Source of the DNA: Bacteroidota bacterium
GTDB lineage: Bacteria > Bacteroidota > Ignavibacteria > Kapaibacteriales > UBA2268
Assembly (NCBI GenBank): GCA_021780815.1
Contig: JAJXYC010000015.1
Coordinates: 399,796 to 463,795, forward strand
Direction of reading: 5' to 3'
Length of the DNA stretch: 64,000 nt
Below, piece by piece: positions 1,572 to 46,298 of the stretch. A program made the position numbers and the translations under genes. Position 1 is the first letter of the stretch. Each line of letters begins with the position of its first letter. A model generated the notes under the pieces. The model saw nothing but the letters and a program-made list of their open reading frames with translations, made no database searches and was not told where the DNA came from.

Positions 1572-3845
1572 TTATTTAGATAGTTTTAATTTGGGTAATT
1601 GAAAAATTAATTCAGTCCCTTGATTTTCTACCGAATTAACTAACAGTTTCCCTCGGTGTAATTCTATAACTTGTTGAATTATCATTGTACCTATTCCAAA
1701 TCCAGAGCCATCTTTTGAAGTAGAAAAATAAGGTGTGAGCATTTTCTGTTTGACTGCTTCATTCATTCCCCTGCCATTGTCTTTGATTTGAAAATAATTA
1801 TATCGTGAATCTGCCCAACAAGAAAGTTCTATTTCTCCTATTTGGTTTGGAAGTGCTTTAATACCATTTTCAACAGCATTACGAATTGCTCTAATGAGTT
1901 TTGGCTCATCACAAACCAAATCAAAATCATTACCTAAAATTTGTATATCAACATTTTGGAAAACATTTTTGTCAAATTCCAAAGATACTTGCTCTAACAA
2001 TTTCAATGAATTTGTGGTAACAAGTTCCAAATTGGAAGAACGACCAACAGTAACAATATCCCGAACACGTTTTTGCAAAGTAGTAACTTGAAAAAGAATT
2101 TTTGAAATTCTACTTAAATTCTCGCCTTTTTCGCATTTCATTTGTTCCGCATTCAATCTTATTGTAAGCAAATTTGTTTGCATATCGTGAGCAAGCTGCG
2201 CCCAATTCGATAATTTCTTTCGCTCAAGCTGTTCAGTTATATCATATCCACTTACAACAAAACCTTTAAATCTACCAACAACCGACCATATTGGAGATAT
2301 ATTAAATAAATATTCTGTATGAATATTATTTTTAATAATGGAAATCCTTTTAGATAAATTCCGTTTTTCTTCTTCCGATATTAAGAAAAGTCTTAACAAA
2401 TCATCGTATTTAGCCGAAACCAAGTAATCTGGAAATGCTCTTTGCAAAGGGATATAAATATCTATCTCAAGGAATTCACGACCTTTTTGATTAATATTAA
2501 TCAACTCATTCCGTTCATTCAATATTATAAAAATACCAGAACTTGGCAAATTGATTAAATCTTGTAATGTCTTCTTTTGCTCATAATAAAGCCGTGAATA
2601 TAAAATAACAAGTAATAACAAAATTACAGGAACTATATAACTTAAAAATAAATCAAGTACTGAATAAAATAGCCAAAAATAATTTTTTGTTTGTAAAAAT
2701 ACCTCTGAATAAGAATTTGACGAAAGAACAATATAATTTTTGAAAAAATTTACATTTGGTTTCCCTGAAAAATTCTTCCCAATTAGGACAAATTCATTTA
2801 ATTGTAAATTACCTTTTTTATCATATGCAATTATTCCATTTCTTAGCACAACATAATAATTACCATTATTATAATTCAAAGAAATAGGTTCAAAAACATT
2901 ATCAGGCAAAAGGCTTTTCTGACATTTCCCATTTTCGAAATTTTCAGAAACTTTACATATATTAAAATAAGTATCATCTTCATCTCTCGAAATATAACTT
3001 AAATATACTTCCCCATCTTCACCTCTATTAAAACTAATAAGTTCAGGCGAACAATCAAAATACTTCGTAATTATTTGCTTGCCTTTGTTTAAATCTATTA
3101 CTTGAACAAGAGTTGTACTTGCATTGTAAAATGAAGATTTAATAAAAATTAAATGATTAAATATTGCAAGAGAATTTTTATCTCCTGAATTTACTTTATA
3201 TTGCTGGATTAAATTTTCATTTTTATCAACTAATTTTAAAATTCCATAAGATGGATTGGCTTCTAAAAAGATATAATTTAATTTTGCAAAAGTTTTAATT
3301 TTATTATTTTCTATATGATCTTGGAAAAAGACAAAATCAGAAATATTTTCACGCATAAATTGAACAGACCAAACATTTTGATGTATATCGCATACATATA
3401 ATTTAGAATTCACTAAAGCAATTACTTTGTTTGAAGAATTACTTTGTATTTTAAAATTATCTTCAGATTGCAAGTCTTCAAATCCATCTAAATTAAATAT
3501 AGATGTCTGGTTTAAATTAGTATCTAATGTAATGAAATATAAGCTGTCTTTATAACTTGTTAAAAGTAATAAATTATGAGCAAATATTATTGAACTTTTA
3601 ATTTGGTAATTATTTAAATTTTTCCCAATTGAATTCTGTTTTTTAATTCCTTGCCAAGTTGTAATTACATCTAATTGGTTAGTCCAATTTGGTTTTAATA
3701 AAAATGTTCTTGGTTGGGTAGTATCAACCAAGATATTACCACCAAGGAAAGATTCTACTTTAGTAATATCCAACGGGAACTTGTATCCAGCTAATAAAGC
3801 TTGTCCAAGTAAAAAAAATAAAAATATAAATATTATTTTTTTCAA
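1572..3845 (-). CDS. Membrane sensor histidine kinase (periplasmic sensor, PAS, HATPase)
   Basis: 757 residues. An N-terminal signal/anchor (KKIIFIFLFFLLGQALLAG) precedes about 370 residues of strand-rich extracytoplasmic sequence, probably a propeller-like sensor. A transmembrane helix near residue 400-420 (PVILLLLVILY) follows, then a PAS-like region (about 430-535). The kinase core has an H-box LAHDMQTNLLT with phospho-acceptor His553, an N-box RNAVENGIKA, G1 DNGRGM, F-box PYFSTS and G2 GSGFGIGT, so it looks active. No response-regulator gene is adjacent, so the partner is unknown. The 26-base gap to the upstream oxidoreductase gene on the same strand suggests cotranscription. Confidence 0.9.
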   Translation of the reverse strand: MKKIIFIFLFFLLGQALLAGYKFPLDITKVESFLGGNILVDTTQPRTFLLKPNWTNQLDVITTWQGIKKQNSIGKNLNNYQIKSSIIFAHNLLLLTSYKDSLYFITLDTNLNQTSIFNLDGFEDLQSEDNFKIQSNSSNKVIALVNSKLYVCDIHQNVWSVQFMRENISDFVFFQDHIENNKIKTFAKLNYIFLEANPSYGILKLVDKNENLIQQYKVNSGDKNSLAIFNHLIFIKSSFYNASTTLVQVIDLNKGKQIITKYFDCSPELISFNRGEDGEVYLSYISRDEDDTYFNICKVSENFENGKCQKSLLPDNVFEPISLNYNNGNYYVVLRNGIIAYDKKGNLQLNEFVLIGKNFSGKPNVNFFKNYIVLSSNSYSEVFLQTKNYFWLFYSVLDLFLSYIVPVILLLLVILYSRLYYEQKKTLQDLINLPSSGIFIILNERNELININQKGREFLEIDIYIPLQRAFPDYLVSAKYDDLLRLFLISEEEKRNLSKRISIIKNNIHTEYLFNISPIWSVVGRFKGFVVSGYDITEQLERKKLSNWAQLAHDMQTNLLTIRLNAEQMKCEKGENLSRISKILFQVTTLQKRVRDIVTVGRSSNLELVTTNSLKLLEQVSLEFDKNVFQNVDIQILGNDFDLVCDEPKLIRAIRNAVENGIKALPNQIGEIELSCWADSRYNYFQIKDNGRGMNEAVKQKMLTPYFSTSKDGSGFGIGTMIIQQVIELHRGKLLVNSVENQGTELIFQLPKLKLSK

Positions 3846-3871
3846 ATTTTAAATTTCCTGCACTTTATCAA

Positions 3872-6007
3872 TTACAAATCCAAAGGTTTTCCAAATTTAA
3901 TAGAATCAATAGCTAGGATAGTTGCTTTTGAAACAGCAAAAATTTCATTATAATTTATAGGCATTGGCAATCTATTTTTTATACTTTGAATAATTTGCTT
4001 AACTTCATTTTGAATTCCTTTTTCACCATTAAAACTATTTTCTTGCAATTTACCTCCTTGGAATAATTTAACTTTTGTAAAATTATCCATTATCGCAGAT
4101 TTCGAAGAAGTATGAACCTCAAAATATTCTTTTGGTAAAGATTGCGCTCCTTCACTTGTATAAATAATATTTCCAATGGAACCATCTCGAAATTTCAAGA
4201 GAATCCCAATATTGTCATTTGCCGCAAATTCTTTTTGCGATGTAGAAGTATTATAAGCATAAACTTGTACAGGCAATGATTTTGCAAGAAAAGTCATAGT
4301 ATCAATAAAATGACAAACTTCACCAATAATTCTACCACCATTTTCAGGTTGTTGCACCCAATGATTTTTGGGAATAGCACCAGCATTAATTCTATACAAC
4401 ATATTCAAAGGTTCGCTACGATTATTGATGAAATCATTTATTTTTAAAAATGGTTCAGAAAATCTACGATTAAATCCAACTATAAATGGGGTTTGATGTA
4501 TTTTATATAATTCGTCAATTTTTTCTAGTTCATCTAAAGAAATTGCCAAAGGTTTCTCTATAAATATAGTTTTGTTATGTTTAATTGCCTCCATAACATA
4601 ATAAGCATGGCTATTATGCCTTGTTGCACAAAAAACAATATCAATTTCATTATTGCTAATAATTTCTTGCGTATTATTTGTAGCAACTTTGAAGTTAAAT
4701 CTTTTCCCAACATTTAAAGAAGTCAGGGGCGTAGAATTTGCAATTGAATGGAACTCCACATCACATTTTTGCAAAGCAGGTAAAAGATAATTTTGGGCAA
4801 AAGTACCAGTCCCAATAAATCCAATATTGATTTTGCTCTTGGGTTTGCCTTCCTTTTTTAATTCAATACTTTTAATATTTTTATTATCTCTTGCCGAATA
4901 AGACAAAACAATGCCAAGATATTTTTCTTTAACTTCACCACTTATGAGCTGATAAGCCTTATTTGCCTCTTGTAAAGGAAATTGATGAGTAGTTAATTTT
5001 TGAAAATTTAATTGATTTTTGGCAAGTAAATTTAAAATAGATTGCATATTCCTATTTTCAGTCCAACGAACAAATCCGATAGGATAATCTTCACCAAGTT
5101 CTTCATAGAATGGGTCATAACGTCCTGGTCCATAACTTGTTGCAATTTTTAATTCTAATTCTTTCCTATAAAAATTATCGCGAGGTATTATCATTGGGAC
5201 AGCACCAACAATAATAATTTTTCCTCTTTTTCTAAGGAGTTCAATAGCAAGTTCAACAGGTTGATTGCTATTTGCAGAAGCAGTTACAAGAACAGAATCA
5301 AAACCAGCAGAATTAGTATTAAAAATTGCTTCTTTAACAAAATCTTTGTTGCTTGGAAAAACATAAGAGCAACCAAATTCATTTGCTAATTGGAATGTTG
5401 ATTCATCAATATCAAAGCCAACAACATTAGCACCATTAGCTTTAAGCAATTGTACAGTAATTTGTCCAATTAAACCTAAACCAATAACAGCAATATTTTC
5501 ACCAATTTTCACTTTTGCTTGTCTGACTCCTTGCAAAGCAATGGCGGCAATTGTAGTGTAGGCGGCATCTTGCAACGATACTTGTTCAGAAATTTTTACT
5601 GCTAAATTTTTTGGTACTGAACAAATTTCACCATGATTCGCATAACCAGCACCGGCTATTGCAACATAATCACCCACCTGAAAATCACTGCAATCAGTTT
5701 CTATTACACGACCTGATGCACTATAACCTAATGTTTTATATGAATCTAATTTAGATTTGACTCTTGCCCAAGTAGAAAAGATTCCCTCTTTTTTGATAAA
5801 ATCAAGTACTATCTTTACTTGGTCTGGTTGCCGTTTTGCTCTTTCAATTAATGAAGCCTTCGCATTATCAACTGACGTTTTTTCTGTCCCTGCACTAATA
5901 ACCGAATAATTGGTTTCAACCAAAATCCCGTTTGGGAAACATTTTGGGGCAGGTATGTCATCAATTATTATCTCACCTGTCTTTTGATGTTGAAGAAGTT
6001 GAAGCAT
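3872..6007 (-). CDS. Bi-domain oxidoreductase: MDR alcohol-dehydrogenase-like + Gfo/Idh/MocA
   Basis: 711 residues. Residues 1-365 are a medium-chain dehydrogenase/reductase with a Rossmann motif GLGLIGQITVQLL followed by VVGFDID. Residues about 385-711 are a Gfo/Idh/MocA dehydrogenase with a second NAD-binding motif GFIGTGTFAQNYLLPALQ and the EKPLAI signature. This fused architecture is a known family ('bi-domain-containing oxidoreductase'), often found in surface-polysaccharide loci and presumed to act on nucleotide sugars; the substrate here is unknown. It lies upstream of the histidine kinase on the same strand. No polysaccharide cluster surrounds it in this window. Confidence 0.88.
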   Translation of the reverse strand: MLQLLQHQKTGEIIIDDIPAPKCFPNGILVETNYSVISAGTEKTSVDNAKASLIERAKRQPDQVKIVLDFIKKEGIFSTWARVKSKLDSYKTLGYSASGRVIETDCSDFQVGDYVAIAGAGYANHGEICSVPKNLAVKISEQVSLQDAAYTTIAAIALQGVRQAKVKIGENIAVIGLGLIGQITVQLLKANGANVVGFDIDESTFQLANEFGCSYVFPSNKDFVKEAIFNTNSAGFDSVLVTASANSNQPVELAIELLRKRGKIIIVGAVPMIIPRDNFYRKELELKIATSYGPGRYDPFYEELGEDYPIGFVRWTENRNMQSILNLLAKNQLNFQKLTTHQFPLQEANKAYQLISGEVKEKYLGIVLSYSARDNKNIKSIELKKEGKPKSKINIGFIGTGTFAQNYLLPALQKCDVEFHSIANSTPLTSLNVGKRFNFKVATNNTQEIISNNEIDIVFCATRHNSHAYYVMEAIKHNKTIFIEKPLAISLDELEKIDELYKIHQTPFIVGFNRRFSEPFLKINDFINNRSEPLNMLYRINAGAIPKNHWVQQPENGGRIIGEVCHFIDTMTFLAKSLPVQVYAYNTSTSQKEFAANDNIGILLKFRDGSIGNIIYTSEGAQSLPKEYFEVHTSSKSAIMDNFTKVKLFQGGKLQENSFNGEKGIQNEVKQIIQSIKNRLPMPINYNEIFAVSKATILAIDSIKFGKPLDL

Positions 6008-6137: not shown

Positions 6138-8726
6138 ATGAAAAAATTAATTGTTTTCTTCTTTATTTTACTAACAAACAAATACTTAGAGGCAAATTAT
6201 ATAAATTTCAACAATGACCAGTTGAAAGAGATGTTCCCCTCAAAAACCCGATTTGTAACAAGTTTAAGTGGTAATTGGGATTATTCCACAAATAATTCTT
6301 CGTGGGAAAGCACGACTTTGCCTAATGTTTTTTATGAAAGTGGTAGAAAAATTTTCCAAAGACAATTCCGAATTGATAAAGATATACTTCATAAATACGA
6401 TTGGTCCTTGTATTTTTTAGGAGCAAGTTCAGAAGTAGAGATTTATATTAATGAACAATTCATCGGAAAATTTTCAAGTAATTATTTGCCCTTTTATGTG
6501 GATATTCCTAAAAAAGTATTGACTAATTCAAATAATACTTTAAAGGTAATTGTTTCCAATCCACAAAATCAAGTTACTAATGAATTAGAGAATGATATAT
6601 TTGAACCCACAATTATTAATGGTATACCAAGAGATATATTTTTAATTGGTTCTCCACAATTGTATGTTTCTAATATTTTATATCAATCCCAAATTGATAA
6701 AAAAATAACCGATGCAAATATTAATGTAACCGCAGAAATTAAGTCAAAAGATTTAGATAATCTTACTCCACTTAATGTTACAGACTCATTAGGTAATAAA
6801 ATTATTTCTTTAAAATCCTATTCAGTCCAATTTCAATTACGAGATAAATCTACTGGCGCAATTGTTAGCTCTTCGGATATATACGGCTTCACAATTGAAC
6901 CTCAAAGAACAATAGTTAAAAATTACAGATTCAGTGTTTCTGGATTTAAGACTTGGTCTACCGAATCACCTAATTTATATGAAATTGTCGTCCGAATTTA
7001 TGCTGGTTCTACTTTAATCGATGAAAATATTAAAAATTTTGCATTCAAATTGTTTGAAACTGACTTGAAATCAAGCAATAAACAGATTCTTTTCAATGGA
7101 AATCCTTTCAAATTTAAAGGCGTGTATTATGTAGAAAATTTTTATAATAATGGGAATATACTTTCTGCATATAGATTTGATGAAGATTTCCGCCAAATGA
7201 AAATTTTAGGAGTGAATGCTATTGTATTCAAATACTTTTACCCTAATCCCTATTTGTTAGATTTGTGCGATAAATATGGTATTCTTGCTTTTATTGATTT
7301 ACCTCTTTATAATACACCAAACAAATTACTTGGAAGTGAAACCATTCTAGCAAGTATTAGCAATCAAGTAAAAAATATTATCCAAATATATTCATCATCA
7401 CCATCTGTCATAGCTTATGGTCTTGGACAAGGTCTCGATGACAATACAAATGAATACAATAAATTTCTTGATAGAATTACTCAAATATTCAAACAAAACA
7501 CAGACAGGTTGCTATATAAGACAGTGTATGCACAGAATACTTTAAAATTTAACAATAATATTGACTTTTTAATTTTCAGGTCTTTTGAATCTCGTAAACC
7601 TTTTGATGTTTTAAATAACATTTATAACCAAGTAAGAACAAAAGCAGACCCTTTACCTATTGTATTTAGTTTTGGTGTTGCAATTCAAAACGATAATCAC
7701 GAAGGTTATTCAGACCCTCTAAGTGTAGAATTCCAAAGTTACTATGCACAAAACTTGTATAAAATTGCACTTGTTAATAATGGCTATGGTTCAATCTTTT
7801 GCGATTTTAATGACTATTATTCTCAATATCCATTACTTGCAACACGTGCAATCAACGACAAATACATAAGTAAAGGTGTATTAGATATTAACAAAAAGAA
7901 TAAAACATCGTTTTTAGTTTTAAAAGCTTTGTTCAATGAAGAAAATGACCCTTTAATTGATATTGGCAATTACTCAAACACAAATTATACTTTTATTATT
8001 TTAAGCCTTTTATTAATCATTTTATTTTTAATGATTATTTCTCGCTTCAGACGCTTCCAAGAGTATTTTGTAAGATCTTTTTTGAGACCATATAATTTTT
8101 ATTCGGATATTCGAGACCAAAGAATTTTATCTCCTTCGTTTACTTACATATTAGGGTTAATGCTATCTTTGACTTTTGGTATTTTTACGGAATCAATTTT
8201 GTACTTTTATAGAACAAGTGAAACCTTCCAATATCTTTTAATGGTCTTTATCCCCGATTCTACAATACTTTCAACATTATTTCATATAATTTGGATTCCG
8301 ATTTTTGGAATATTTGCCTTTGCTTTATTATATTTTGTTAAAATGTATATAATCTCATTAATCATACGACTATTCGCTTATTTCAAACATTTACGTATCC
8401 ATAATTTTGATGTAATGAATATTGTTTTTTGGGGTAGTTTGCCAATCATTTTACTTTTACCAATTGATATAGTATTATTCAAACTATTACAAATAAATTC
8501 CATTTTCTTTAATATACTTTTTGTCTTATCAATTTTAATTATCATTTATTCAATTTTTAGAATTTTAAAAGCAACTGCAGTATTGTTTGATGCAACCTTT
8601 GAAAAAGTATATTTAATTGGTTTGGGAGTAATTTTTATTTTATTTTTTGCATTATATTTATTCTATCAATCTCAATCAAATTTTAGCAATACAATTTCAT
8701 ATTATTTTTCGGTACTAATAAAATGA
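6138..8726 (+). CDS. GH2-like (beta-galactosidase fold) protein with C-terminal multi-pass membrane domain
   Basis: 862 residues from the ATG that begins a proper signal peptide (MKKLIVFFFILLTNKYLEA); an in-frame ATG at 6096 would add 14 unneeded residues. Residues about 40-170 resemble the GH2 sugar-binding jelly roll (YFLGASSEVEIYINEQFIG), then an Ig-like sandwich, then a TIM-barrel-like part (FKGVYYVENF, LDLCDKYGILAFIDLP). The position where GH2 enzymes carry the acid/base Asn-Glu (WSLGNE) reads YGLGQGLD near residue 428, so that catalytic Glu is missing. From about residue 620 there are six or more hydrophobic helices, possibly a Yip1-like domain. Its stop overlaps the fmt start (ATGA). 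It is probably a membrane-tethered carbohydrate-binding protein rather than a hydrolase. Confidence 0.72.
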   Translation: MKKLIVFFFILLTNKYLEANYINFNNDQLKEMFPSKTRFVTSLSGNWDYSTNNSSWESTTLPNVFYESGRKIFQRQFRIDKDILHKYDWSLYFLGASSEVEIYINEQFIGKFSSNYLPFYVDIPKKVLTNSNNTLKVIVSNPQNQVTNELENDIFEPTIINGIPRDIFLIGSPQLYVSNILYQSQIDKKITDANINVTAEIKSKDLDNLTPLNVTDSLGNKIISLKSYSVQFQLRDKSTGAIVSSSDIYGFTIEPQRTIVKNYRFSVSGFKTWSTESPNLYEIVVRIYAGSTLIDENIKNFAFKLFETDLKSSNKQILFNGNPFKFKGVYYVENFYNNGNILSAYRFDEDFRQMKILGVNAIVFKYFYPNPYLLDLCDKYGILAFIDLPLYNTPNKLLGSETILASISNQVKNIIQIYSSSPSVIAYGLGQGLDDNTNEYNKFLDRITQIFKQNTDRLLYKTVYAQNTLKFNNNIDFLIFRSFESRKPFDVLNNIYNQVRTKADPLPIVFSFGVAIQNDNHEGYSDPLSVEFQSYYAQNLYKIALVNNGYGSIFCDFNDYYSQYPLLATRAINDKYISKGVLDINKKNKTSFLVLKALFNEENDPLIDIGNYSNTNYTFIILSLLLIILFLMIISRFRRFQEYFVRSFLRPYNFYSDIRDQRILSPSFTYILGLMLSLTFGIFTESILYFYRTSETFQYLLMVFIPDSTILSTLFHIIWIPIFGIFAFALLYFVKMYIISLIIRLFAYFKHLRIHNFDVMNIVFWGSLPIILLLPIDIVLFKLLQINSIFFNILFVLSILIIIYSIFRILKATAVLFDATFEKVYLIGLGVIFILFFALYLFYQSQSNFSNTISYYFSVLIK

Positions 8727-43254: not shown

Positions 43255-43314
43255 TAATTAAATTGAATTAAATTGAATTAAATTGAATTAAATTGAATTA
43301 AATTGAATTAAATT
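43255..43314. repeat. 10-bp tandem repeat (AATTGAATTA), about six copies
   Basis: AATTGAATTA repeats head to tail from 43261 to 43310, with partial units on both sides. The period equals one helical turn, so it should be intrinsically phased, and slippage could change copy number. It lies in the 491-base gap 43030-43520 between divergent genes, about 210 bases before the six-cysteine secreted protein. Just before it, CACACT/AGTGTG (43234-43254) forms a small hairpin. Nothing coding was seen in this gap. Confidence 0.85.
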
Positions 43315-43421
43315 ATTGCTAATTTTGTAACAGTTGTTTTGAATAAAAGGTTTTTTTATATAAAATTGAATTGAACTAAATATATATTGACAATTTATTT
43401 GTGTAATATTAATACTTATAA

Positions 43422-43465: not shown

Positions 43466-43520
43466 CAATACTATATTTACTTTTTTTAACAAAATATATT
43501 AAACTTAAAGGAGTAATTTA

Positions 43521-43970
43521 ATGAAAAACAAAATATTAGTTATAATAAGTTTTTCTGTTCTATTATTTATGTATAGTAACATCTATGCAGGAACTGGAAC
43601 AGCAAAACCTATCACACATTGTTGGCATACTGCCATTCACTATGTATACGCTCAGCCGTGTTTTGGGGAAGGAACTGGATGTACTGTCTGCGAAACAGTA
43701 CTAATTATTTATCCGTTTTCAATGTCGGCTTATGGCAATGGGACTATGTTACAAATACCTATTTCAGGAGCTAGTCATCAATGCACGCCGGACACAACAA
43801 CAATATCTCCTTATGAACAAATATTCTCAAGCGAAAATTATACTTTTGGTCCGGAATCTCAATTGGTCATTGAAACATGCGATAATCCAGATTTAATTGG
43901 CTTGACTCTTGACGTAGGTGGTATGACAACCGACAATAATGGAATTCTAAATTATTATTTACCTTTTTAA
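43521..43970 (+). CDS. Small secreted six-cysteine protein, unknown family
   Basis: 149 residues. A classical signal peptide (KNKILVIISFSVLLFMYSNIYA) gives a mature protein of about 126 residues with exactly six cysteines (THCWH, AQPCFG, TGCTVC, HQCTPD, ETCDN), compatible with three disulfides. No domain recognised. A strong Shine-Dalgarno sequence (AAAGGAG) precedes the ATG, unlike most genes here. It is followed by a hairpin terminator and then by a thioredoxin-fold protein with a CxxC motif, suggesting an oxidative-folding or redox link (inference). Confidence 0.72.
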   Translation: MKNKILVIISFSVLLFMYSNIYAGTGTAKPITHCWHTAIHYVYAQPCFGEGTGCTVCETVLIIYPFSMSAYGNGTMLQIPISGASHQCTPDTTTISPYEQIFSSENYTFGPESQLVIETCDNPDLIGLTLDVGGMTTDNNGILNYYLPF

Positions 43971-43988
43971 TTTTCAATTAAAATGTTT

Positions 43989-44044
43989 AGGTATTTCTTT
44001 TATTATAAGCAACTATTTGTTATTTAAGTATAAAAGAAATACCT
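43989..44044 (+). terminator. Long intergenic hairpin between the six-cysteine gene and the thioredoxin-fold gene
   Basis: A perfect 15-bp inverted repeat, AGGTATTTCTTTTAT (43989-44003) and ATAAAAGAAATACCT (44030-44044), followed by TTTTGTATTTATTTT. It looks like a Rho-independent terminator or attenuator that would lower expression of the downstream genes relative to the first gene. Confidence 0.7.
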
Positions 44045-44071
44045 TTTGTATTTATTTTAAGGATACTATTT

Positions 44072-45643
44072 ATGAAAATAACTTTAAAATCTTCTATTCT
44101 TTTATTGTTCATTATTACAAGCAATAATATTTTATATTGCAGTACCAATAAAGTTACTGAATACTCAACTAACAGTATATTACCGAAGTTTGATACAACA
44201 AATTATTACGATGCAAGACTCTATTTCTTTTTGACATATCCATCTTGTTCTGTATGTATTAATGATATGGATTTATTATATCAAATTGTAAAATCTACAT
44301 ATAACAATAGATCAATAGAAATAGTCGGAATTATTAACGGTCCTACTCCTTCATCTGTAATTGATATAGCAAAGGCAAACAAATGGGAATTCACAACACT
44401 TTCTGATGCTCTTAATGTTTATTCAAAAGAATTTAAAATAAAAAGTCATAATTCATTTCTTTTACTTAACAATAATGGTAATTTAATACAATCTGGTGAA
44501 TTTGCAACACCAACATTTAATTTGGATAATATTTTATCAGATATTAATAAGTTAATTAAAGAAAGAAAGGAACATAATAACACAAATAGCAATAATTCAA
44601 TTCAAGAAATTAAAAATATAGAAATAAAACTTAAAGGGGAAAGTATAATAAGTCCTAATGGTCAAAGTTGCCTATATTCAGAAAAATATAATAAATTTAT
44701 TATATATGAGAATTCCCAAGTAAGACTACTTATTGCCGATACAAATGGTAATGTAGAAAAAGAATATAATATTAAAAATATCTTTCATTTCAGCAATCCG
44801 TCTTTAATCAATATGAACTTTGAAAAAAATGGGGACAAAATAATTAACCATTTTGTAATTGTCCCCCAAAATGATGATTCGCCACTTAATTCTAATTGGC
44901 ATAAAATCATTGAGTATGATATACTAAAAGATATCTTAAAATTAGTAAGTTTACCATATATTGATTCTTTGCCATCTGATGAATTAAACGGTCAGATATA
45001 TGCTAACACCTTTGATAATGGATTTATCCTAACTGGAATTACAAATAATAATTCAACCAATACAACAACACTATCTTTACTTAATAACAAAGGTTATTTG
45101 ATTAAAAAAGCAGGTAAACTTGCATCTCCATACATCAAACTGCATCTAAATAGCTTATATCGAGAATTTTTAATATCAGACAACAACAATTATTATTCTT
45201 GGCAAAACGGAGATTCTATTATTAATAAGTTCGATAAAAATTTCAACATTATTAATAGTGTTGAGTTATCATTTGCAAATTCAAGAAGATTGACTAAGAT
45301 GCCTGAGCCTACAATAATAAGTAAAAATGATGCATCTATGACAACTTTTTTAAATAACACCAGCCTTAGCTGGAGTTTTGCAATTGATAAAGTTAAAAAT
45401 CATTTTTTAACTTTAATTAGAAATTATACATTTCCAAAAGGTGTTACAGAATTGTTTTCTCCTTATGCAAAAAATGAGTATTTTTTAAACATTTTTAATG
45501 AGAATGGAAAATTAATTTCTGATGATATTCTTTTAAAAGATAAATCCCCTACTATTATATATTTTAATAATAACAAAATATTTGTATCCTGTAATGATTA
45601 TGATAAAATACAAATTAAATTATATAAATTTCAAAACAAATAA
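44072..45643 (+). CDS. Secreted thioredoxin-fold protein with propeller-like C-terminus
   Basis: 523 residues. A signal peptide (KITLKSSILLLFIITSNNILYC) is followed by a thioredoxin/AhpC-like domain at about 45-165: ARLYFFLTYPSCSVCINDMDLL carries a CSVC active-site-like motif after the first strand, and SFLLLNNNGNLIQSGEF is the typical later strand pair. Residues about 185-520 are strand-rich with repeating short blades, resembling the 6-bladed propellers (BF3164-like) of Bacteroidota. SD-like AAGGA lies before the start. The next ORF begins 6 bases after its stop, so they form an operon. Confidence 0.72.
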   Translation: MKITLKSSILLLFIITSNNILYCSTNKVTEYSTNSILPKFDTTNYYDARLYFFLTYPSCSVCINDMDLLYQIVKSTYNNRSIEIVGIINGPTPSSVIDIAKANKWEFTTLSDALNVYSKEFKIKSHNSFLLLNNNGNLIQSGEFATPTFNLDNILSDINKLIKERKEHNNTNSNNSIQEIKNIEIKLKGESIISPNGQSCLYSEKYNKFIIYENSQVRLLIADTNGNVEKEYNIKNIFHFSNPSLINMNFEKNGDKIINHFVIVPQNDDSPLNSNWHKIIEYDILKDILKLVSLPYIDSLPSDELNGQIYANTFDNGFILTGITNNNSTNTTTLSLLNNKGYLIKKAGKLASPYIKLHLNSLYREFLISDNNNYYSWQNGDSIINKFDKNFNIINSVELSFANSRRLTKMPEPTIISKNDASMTTFLNNTSLSWSFAIDKVKNHFLTLIRNYTFPKGVTELFSPYAKNEYFLNIFNENGKLISDDILLKDKSPTIIYFNNNKIFVSCNDYDKIQIKLYKFQNK

Positions 45644-45649
45644 TAACAA

Positions 45650-45805
45650 ATGCAATTCTTTTATATAAATACCAAAAATAATCTATATCTAATATCATTT
45701 TTCATTATATTAAATTTAATATTAAATTTAAATAAATTACCGTTATTTTCGCAAGAATACTCTAATTTAATTAATGGAATATCCTTATATTCCTTGGCAG
45801 CCTGA
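45650..45805 (+). other. Detached signal-peptide ORF of the second six-cysteine protein
   Basis: An ATG 6 bases after the previous stop opens 51 codons: a hydrophobic stretch (LISFFIILNLILNLNKLPLFS) with a plausible cleavage before QEYSNLIN, then a stop at 45803. It lies in a different frame from the cysteine-rich ORF at 45774-46298, overlapping it by 32 bases. One extra base around 45771-45802 would explain the split; joining the two gives a normal secreted protein of about 214 residues. Confidence 0.6.
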
Positions 45806-46298
45806 TTTAAAATTGCCGCCAGATTCAGATAGCGTTAAGTTAAACAATAATATATTTATTTTAAAATATAGATATTTCGTTTCTGATTCAACCAATAGGA
45901 TAATCTACATCGAAAAAATAATTGGATTATCATCAAACTCTTCAATAGATGATTGTATAAATATCTCTCATAGTGTTAGTGAATTTATATCAGATTTATG
46001 CCTTGCTTTCCTTGCAAAATTTAGTCTATTCTTACCTCCCAAAAATAATAATGAAAGTTTGGAACTATCATTTATTACGGAATCTTGCTGGAAAATACCA
46101 AGAATAAATATTATCCACAATTCCCAGATAATGGAAAGTTGCCCATCTGCTAAACTTTACAAAACATCTGTAAAAATTTTAAATGAAAATATGGCAATAA
46201 AACTATCTTTAAGAAGAAACCAACTTGATTTAAATGATCCTTGCAACAATAGAACTTATAAAATAAATTCATCAGATTGTTTCCCTATTTGGCAATAA
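45774..46298 (+). CDS. Second six-cysteine protein, mature part in shifted frame
   Basis: 174 residues without a signal peptide in frame. A stop codon (TAA at 45768) lies just upstream in this frame, so translation alone would start at MEYPYIPWQPDL. It contains six cysteines (DDCIN, DLCLA, ESCWK, ESCPS, DPCNN, SDCFP), like the secreted protein at 43521, though the two do not align obviously. The missing signal peptide is found in the overlapping ORF 45650-45805. It is either a frameshifted gene (mutation or assembly error) or an unusual overlapping pair. No known family. Confidence 0.6.
   Translation: MEYPYIPWQPDLKLPPDSDSVKLNNNIFILKYRYFVSDSTNRIIYIEKIIGLSSNSSIDDCINISHSVSEFISDLCLAFLAKFSLFLPPKNNNESLELSFITESCWKIPRINIIHNSQIMESCPSAKLYKTSVKILNENMAIKLSLRRNQLDLNDPCNNRTYKINSSDCFPIWQ

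What the first reader, a model, noticed from the sequence alone, without database searches (positions are those of the whole stretch)
43521..46298. Cassette of two six-cysteine secreted proteins around a CxxC thioredoxin/propeller protein
Both small proteins have exactly six cysteines and neither matches a family I know. The middle protein carries CSVC on a thioredoxin fold with a propeller-like tail. The genes follow each other with tight spacing and unusually strong SD sequences. This looks like a dedicated disulfide-folding or redox-exchange system for exported cysteine-rich proteins; it partly recalls Bacteroidota loci pairing small secreted peptides with BF3164-type propellers.
Basis: inference. 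Interest (0 to 1): 0.7.

Follow-up and report, generated by a model that had tools for sequence, protein, structure and literature searches.

The report
Secreted protein with dedicated thioredoxin-propeller partner

Summary
The two-gene core of the finding is real; the three-gene cassette is not. P1 (43521-43970, 149 aa) is a signal-peptide protein matching no Pfam or NCBIfam family. P2 (44072-45643, 523 aa) is predicted to be a TlpA/ResA-like thioredoxin fold (CSVC) joined to a six-bladed-propeller-like domain. I found the P1-P2 order, same strand, in 23 loci of one class of Bacteroidota-type bacteria, often with two or three P1 genes. P1 occurs without P2 only as one 51-aa remnant; P2 does occur alone. 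The family trait of P1 is not six cysteines but one loop, C-x3-G-x2-C; several members have only those two. A strong hairpin often lies between P1 and P2, suggesting P1 is made in excess. P3 (45774-46298) has no signal peptide in its frame; its probable signal peptide sits in another frame. It is absent from every other P1-P2 locus seen, and its one convincing relative is a damaged, unlinked copy. Most likely P2 is a dedicated periplasmic redox/folding partner that grips P1 with its propeller. Human NHLRC2 and plant SOQ1 are the closest architectures. The partnership is strongly supported; the redox activity is inferred. In the window's own P2 the usual cis-proline is Asn.

The parts
43507..43513 (+). 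Shine-Dalgarno AAAGGAG of P1
   Evidence: sequence; 6 of 36 window starts have a 6-nt or longer SD match
43521..43970 (+). P1: small exported protein, 149 aa, signal peptide about residues 1-23; conserved loop C47-x3-G51-x2-C54; C-terminal motif L-x-G-h-x-h-D-x-x-G-h-T-T-D-x-N-G...h-P
   Evidence: 23 P1-P2 loci
43659..43682 (+). C-x3-G-x2-C loop of P1 (CFGEGTGC, residues 47-54), the family's only near-invariant cysteines
   Evidence: aligned columns hold Cys in 26/27 and 27/27; some members have only these two Cys after the signal peptide
43989..44044 (+). Hairpin with 15-bp stem between P1 and P2, followed by a T-rich stretch: likely partial terminator or mRNA-end stabiliser
   Evidence: z -3.37, 0 of 200 shuffles fold as well; hairpins of unrelated sequence at the same place in relatives
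44072..45643 (+). P2: signal peptide + TlpA/ResA-like thioredoxin fold + six-bladed-propeller-like domain, 523 aa
44204..44566 (+). P2 thioredoxin-fold domain (about residues 45-165); active-site CSVC at 44246-44257; cis-Pro position is Asn127
44582..45640 (+). P2 propeller domain (residues 171-523)
   Evidence: VIA Z 19.5 to 3s9j (DUF4221), 322 residues, rmsd 4.0
45650..46298 (+). P3 region: ORF 45650-45805 (signal-peptide-like) and ORF 45774-46298 (174 aa, six Cys) in two different frames; probably one frameshifted gene; NOT part of the conserved unit

Best explanation
P1-P2 is a conserved two-gene unit made of an exported protein and its dedicated partner. Shown: P1 genes lie directly upstream of P2 on the same strand in 23 loci. 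P1 keeps one C-x3-G-x2-C loop and a C-terminal beta-rich motif. P2 keeps a secreted thioredoxin fold with the first Cys of CxxC invariant, joined to a propeller-like domain. Inferred: both proteins go to the periplasm; the P2 propeller docks P1; the thioredoxin CxxC makes, rearranges or keeps reduced the P1 loop cysteines (or P2 holds P1 as a folding chaperone where the active site is degenerate); and the hairpin after P1 lowers P2 expression, so P1 is the bulk product and P2 the sub-stoichiometric helper. P3 is not part of it.
For: 23 loci with P1 directly upstream of P2; P1 alone only as a 51-aa remnant. P2 also occurs alone, so the dependence runs from P1 to P2. P1 loop Cys in 26/27 and 27/27; P2 CxxC in 28/28 and 24/28, D112 in 28/28, cis-Pro in 23/28. 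The P2 profile matches ResA-type oxidoreductases weakly; the model gives Trx + propeller, with human NHLRC2 and plant SOQ1 among the top three matches. A hairpin in the P1-P2 gap reached p<=0.02 in 8 of 13 loci, against 3 of 16 control gaps; four P1-P1 gaps under 50 bp showed none, and one 300-bp gap was borderline at p 0.065. In 9 of 10 DUF6520 loci in other Bacteroidota, a small exported Cys protein sits next to a second protein: in 8 it carries MauE or its CGG-containing region with a long C-terminal extension. That is the same layout with a different redox module.
Against: No redox, disulfide or binding data. The window's P2 has Asn at the cis-Pro position, and four relatives lack the second active-site Cys, so catalysis is doubtful in some copies. 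The P1 model is unusable (pLDDT 43); the P2 model is moderate and its domain packing is not reliable. NHLRC2, the closest solved architecture, showed no insulin reductase activity (PMC6107167). No VKOR in this genome or 39 relatives, so the electron acceptor is unknown. The hairpin has a long loop and lacks a clear T-run in several loci.
Confidence: 0.48

Rival explanations
1. P1 is a secreted effector, adhesin or signal, and P2 is its cognate binding partner (immunity, receptor or anchoring protein). The propeller gives specificity and the thioredoxin fold is mostly structural.
For: In the closest paralogue pair (L081/L082, one genome) P1 differs in the Cys-loop region (11 of 20 residues) but not in the rest of the mature C-terminal part (0 of 94), and P2 differs in the propeller (64/348) far more than in the Trx domain (4/165). 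L086/L088 shows a similar layout. P1 duplicates in tandem. Some P2 copies lack the second Cys or the cis-Pro.
Against: L086/L118 is a mosaic with other breakpoints, and L078/L083 shows no clustering, so gene conversion explains the pattern as well. The first Cys of P2 is invariant. P1 matches no toxin, phage or defence family.
Confidence: 0.25
2. P2 is a reductive redox switch like plant SOQ1: it keeps the P1 loop cysteines reduced under normal conditions, and oxidation activates P1.
For: Same Trx + propeller architecture as SOQ1/NHLRC2. SOQ1 is proposed to provide reducing power to a lumenal target, possibly LCNP (PMC10173003). ResA/TlpA-type domains are usually reductive. No VKOR in the lineage.
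Against: No NHL family match and no CC(I/V)NC motif in P2; P1 has no lipocalin match. DsbD/CcdA supply was not tested.
Confidence: 0.15
3. One reading: a three-gene cassette in which P3 is a second client of P2.
For: P3 starts 6 bp after P2 (frame of 45650) on the same strand and has six Cys.
Against: P3 is split over two frames; absent downstream of P2 at the other P1-P2 loci examined; its one convincing relative, a copy with an in-frame stop, follows an unrelated 1671-aa gene.
Confidence: 0.04

Closest known systems
NHLRC2 (human) / SOQ1 (plant) Trx-NHL proteins
   Same: [quoted passage not shown] among the top three Foldseek matches to P2 (6gc1, 7djk); SOQ1 acts on a small lumenal protein
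   Different: 11-13% identity; no NHL family match; CSVC/CFxC instead of CC(I/V)NC; bacterial NHLRC2 homologues were reported to have no conserved neighbours (PMC6107167), whereas P2 has P1
TlpA/ResA/StoA thiol-disulfide oxidoreductases
   Same: CxxC, conserved Asp and usually cis-Pro; weak profile matches
   Different: all below curated cut-offs in the window protein; fused to a propeller; window copy lacks the cis-Pro
Bacteroides DUF4221 propellers (and BF3164-type propellers)
   Same: propeller domain aligns best with 3s9j (Z 19.5, 322 residues, rmsd 4.0)
   Different: no Pfam propeller match in 24 members; DUF4221 and BF3164 proteins, as I recall them, lack a thioredoxin domain
DUF6520 + MauE-fusion loci
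   Same: small exported Cys protein next to a redox-type protein with a long C-terminal extension
   Different: no sequence relationship by profile-profile comparison; redox module is MauE; the extension is unassigned and its fold untested
Sublancin SunA-BdbB type operons
   Same: secreted Cys-containing product encoded with its own thiol-disulfide oxidoreductase (PMC6391423)
   Different: no transporter, protease or glycosyltransferase recognised here; P2 is Trx-propeller; P1 uses a Sec signal peptide

Membership tests
NHLRC2/SOQ1 | Trx-like domain followed by six-bladed propeller | tested here: met
   AF2 model of moderate confidence; Foldseek E 5e-10 to 6gc1
NHLRC2/SOQ1 | NHL repeats at sequence level | tested here: not met
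   no NHL family in 24 members at E<=0.01
NHLRC2/SOQ1 | CC(I/V)NC active site | tested here: not met
   CSVC in the window; C-x-x-C of other composition in relatives
TlpA/ResA thiol-disulfide oxidoreductase | CxxC in a thioredoxin fold | tested here: met
   28/28 first Cys, 24/28 second Cys; model
TlpA/ResA thiol-disulfide oxidoreductase | cis-Pro opposite the active site | tested here: not met
   Asn127 in the window protein; Pro in 23 of 28
TlpA/ResA thiol-disulfide oxidoreductase | score above curated cut-off | tested here: not met
   AhpC-TSA 20.9 vs 26, Thioredoxin_8 19.1 vs 27; ResA 13.4 vs 170
TlpA/ResA thiol-disulfide oxidoreductase | oxidoreductase activity | not testable with these tools
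   needs purified protein
NVEALA / BF3164 pair | small protein matches NVEALA (PF14055) | tested here: not met
   no match in 26 P1 members; none in the window's genome
NVEALA / BF3164 pair | partner matches a Pfam propeller family | tested here: not met
   no Pfam propeller match in 24 P2 members
NVEALA / BF3164 pair | partner has a six-bladed propeller fold | tested here: met
   best VIA match is the DUF4221 propeller 3s9j, Z 19.5
DUF6520-MauE pair | small protein homologous to DUF6520 | tested here: not met
   hhalign probability below 1%; the weak hmmsearch hit spans mainly the signal peptide plus C..C
SunA-BdbB-type dedicated disulfide system | oxidoreductase needed for disulfides of the co-encoded product | not testable with these tools
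   experiment needed

The most novel reading that the evidence does not exclude
P1 and P2 form matched, locus-specific pairs: the C-x3-G-x2-C loop of P1 is a variable recognition loop read by the P2 propeller blades, and both segments diversify together by gene conversion while the Trx domain and the P1 C-terminal part stay fixed. The unit would be a cognate secreted-protein/redox-chaperone or effector/immunity system with exchangeable specificity.
Probability: 0.18. Interest if true: 0.75.

Novelty: new variant of a known kind. Interest (0 to 1): 0.55.

Why it matters
Trx-propeller proteins such as NHLRC2 (essential in mammals) and SOQ1 (photoprotection) are reported as having unresolved redox function or targets, and a survey of their bacterial homologues found no operon partner. 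Here a bacterial protein of the same architecture comes with a conserved neighbour in 23 loci, which offers a simple system for asking what the propeller binds and what the thioredoxin domain does. P1 is also a protein family that none of the searched libraries holds.

Tried and rejected
(1) P3 as a third component: rejected. (2) Six cysteines as a signature: rejected. (3) P1 as NVEALA or DUF6520: no match. (5) Phage or defence origin: no PHROG match at E<=0.03 and no PADLOC match for the window proteins. (6) VKOR as electron acceptor: none in 40 genomes. (7) Naming relatives by genome contigs: the first alignment had no usable stretch; the second gave three named loci. (8) PDB sequence search with P1: nothing convincing. 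(9) Literature: no held paper on NVEALA, DUF4221 or DUF6520, and one incidental paper for BF3164.

Full report
What is there. The window holds P1 (43521-43970, 149 aa) and P2 (44072-45643, 523 aa) on the + strand. P1 has a Sec-type signal peptide and six cysteines, and matches nothing in Pfam or NCBIfam beyond chance. The N-terminal part of P2 gives sub-threshold AhpC-TSA/Thioredoxin_8 and ResA matches; its other two thirds match no Pfam family. P1 and P2 have better Shine-Dalgarno sequences than most starts in the window: 6 of 36 have a 6-nt or longer match, and these are two of the six.

The third protein. The ORF at 45774-46298 has six cysteines but begins without a signal peptide or SD. 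A 51-aa ORF at 45650-45805, starting 6 bp after P2, carries a signal-peptide-like start in a different frame and overlaps it. This looks like one gene with a frameshift, or an assembly indel. There is no paralogue in the genome. In 123 genomes of the order the only convincing relative is in the same genus (40% identity); that copy has an in-frame stop, no recognisable signal-peptide start, and follows an unrelated 1671-aa gene; two further matches at E about 0.008 are not convincing. No related protein was recognised downstream of P2 at the other P1-P2 loci. P3 is therefore a local neighbour, not a member.

The pair elsewhere. A P1 profile found 16 of 123 genomes of the order; wider samples gave hits only within the class. 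Reading the neighbourhoods gave 23 P1-P2 loci: the window, L010-L015, L075-L086, L088, L089, L115 and L148. P1 lies directly upstream of P2 on the same strand in each; the L012 copy is cut by a contig end and the L084 copy contains stops. P1 is doubled in L013, L014, L075, L079 and L080 and tripled in L076; P2 is doubled in L078 and L089. P1 without P2 was seen once, as a 51-aa remnant in L087. P2-like genes without a recognised intact P1 exist (L090-L094, and more distant ones). The window's own genome has a second pair (L010). Three related loci carry names: an uncultured Ignavibacteria MAG, ChocPot_Mid and Chlorobiota J074, so the lineage is in the Ignavibacteria/Kapabacteria neighbourhood (inference).

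What is conserved. In P1 only two cysteine columns are near-invariant (26/27 and 27/27), in the motif C-x3-G-x2-C; a third (own C120) is present in 15 of 27. Mature P1 proteins have 2 to 7 cysteines, and several have only the loop pair. The C-terminal part, L-x-G-h-x-h-D-x-x-G-h-T-T-D-x-N-G...h-P, is the best-conserved stretch. In P2 the first Cys of CxxC is in 28/28, the second in 24/28, Asp112 in 28/28 and the cis-Pro in 23/28; the window's own copy has Asn127 instead of the cis-Pro.

Structure. The P2 model (pLDDT 64, pTM 0.56) has a thioredoxin fold and then about 23 strands. Foldseek's first and third matches are human NHLRC2 Trx+NHL (6gc1) and 7djk, titled 'quenching protein', which I take to be SOQ1. 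VIA aligns residues 171-523 best with the Bacteroides DUF4221 propeller 3s9j, Z 19.5, 322 residues, rmsd 4.0. The P1 model is too poor to use.

Gene expression layout. Between P1 and P2 lies a hairpin with a 15-bp stem at 43989-44044 (z -3.4). At the same place in relatives, hairpins of unrelated sequence recur: p<=0.02 in 8 of 13 gaps, against 3 of 16 control gaps; of five P1-P1 gaps four showed none and one long gap was borderline. I read this as a partial terminator or 3'-end stabiliser that makes P1 more abundant than P2; this is inference.

Specificity lead. Two P1-P2 paralogue pairs in one genome (L081, L082) are almost identical except in the P1 signal peptide and loop region (11 of 20 residues changed against 0 of 94 after it) and in parts of the P2 propeller (64 of 348 against 4 of 165 in the Trx domain). 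L086/L088 is similar. L086/L118 has other breakpoints and L078/L083 has no clustering. Synonymous changes cluster in the same blocks, so these are gene-conversion mosaics; whether the exchanged blocks are matched recognition surfaces is open.

How it probably works. P2 is exported, binds P1 through its propeller and acts on the P1 loop cysteines with CxxC, or in copies with a degenerate site acts as a holding chaperone. The conserved pair is shown; export is read from signal peptides; binding and redox action are inferred. SOQ1 is the nearest mechanistic parallel: a lumenal Trx-NHL protein proposed to provide reducing power to a target, possibly LCNP (PMC10173003). NHLRC2 showed no insulin reductase activity, and its bacterial homologues had no conserved neighbours in the genomes examined (PMC6107167). 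Sublancin shows that an exported Cys product can be encoded with its own oxidoreductase (PMC6391423). Other Bacteroidota have an analogous layout: DUF6520 small Cys proteins beside MauE fusions, without detectable sequence relationship.

Verdict. A real, undescribed two-gene unit; a new variant of a known kind (product plus dedicated thiol-disulfide or chaperone partner), with an unnamed substrate family.

Noticed in passing
window 45650-46298: P3 appears as two overlapping ORFs in different frames (signal-peptide part and six-Cys part): a frameshift mutation or assembly indel.
   Followed up: partly
window 43256-43315: Tandem repeat of a 10-bp unit AATTAAATTG, 5.9 perfect copies, about 200 bp upstream of P1.
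   Followed up: no
L010:1719-2008, 3762-4127, 6587-6947: A dispersed repeat of roughly 250-350 bp occurs three times in the window's own genome (contig C17), with copies on both sides of the second P1-P2 pair.
   Followed up: no
L015:6662-6901 and 6876-8177: P2 of a same-genus genome is split over two frames near a homopolymer run.
   Followed up: partly
L127-L134, L137, L138: DUF6520 small Cys proteins sit next to a longer protein in 9 of 10 loci; in 8 it carries MauE or its CGG-containing region with an unassigned C-terminal extension, and in one (L134) a 360-aa protein without that motif follows.
   Followed up: partly
L087:5325-5480: A 51-aa C-terminal remnant of P1, nearly identical to the P1 of a same-genus genome (L077), with no P2 nearby: apparent loss of the unit.
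   Followed up: partly
L114:70-5595: A damaged relative of P3 follows a 1671-aa cysteine-rich secreted protein in a same-genus genome.
   Followed up: partly
L011:5321-5998 and L012:1140-1886: Two P1-P2 loci lie next to response-regulator genes that look OmpR-type.
   Followed up: no
L086:2892-3197: A 101-aa cysteine-rich ORF (9 Cys) downstream of P2 starts with almost the same signal peptide as the P1 of that locus but has an unrelated remainder.
   Followed up: no
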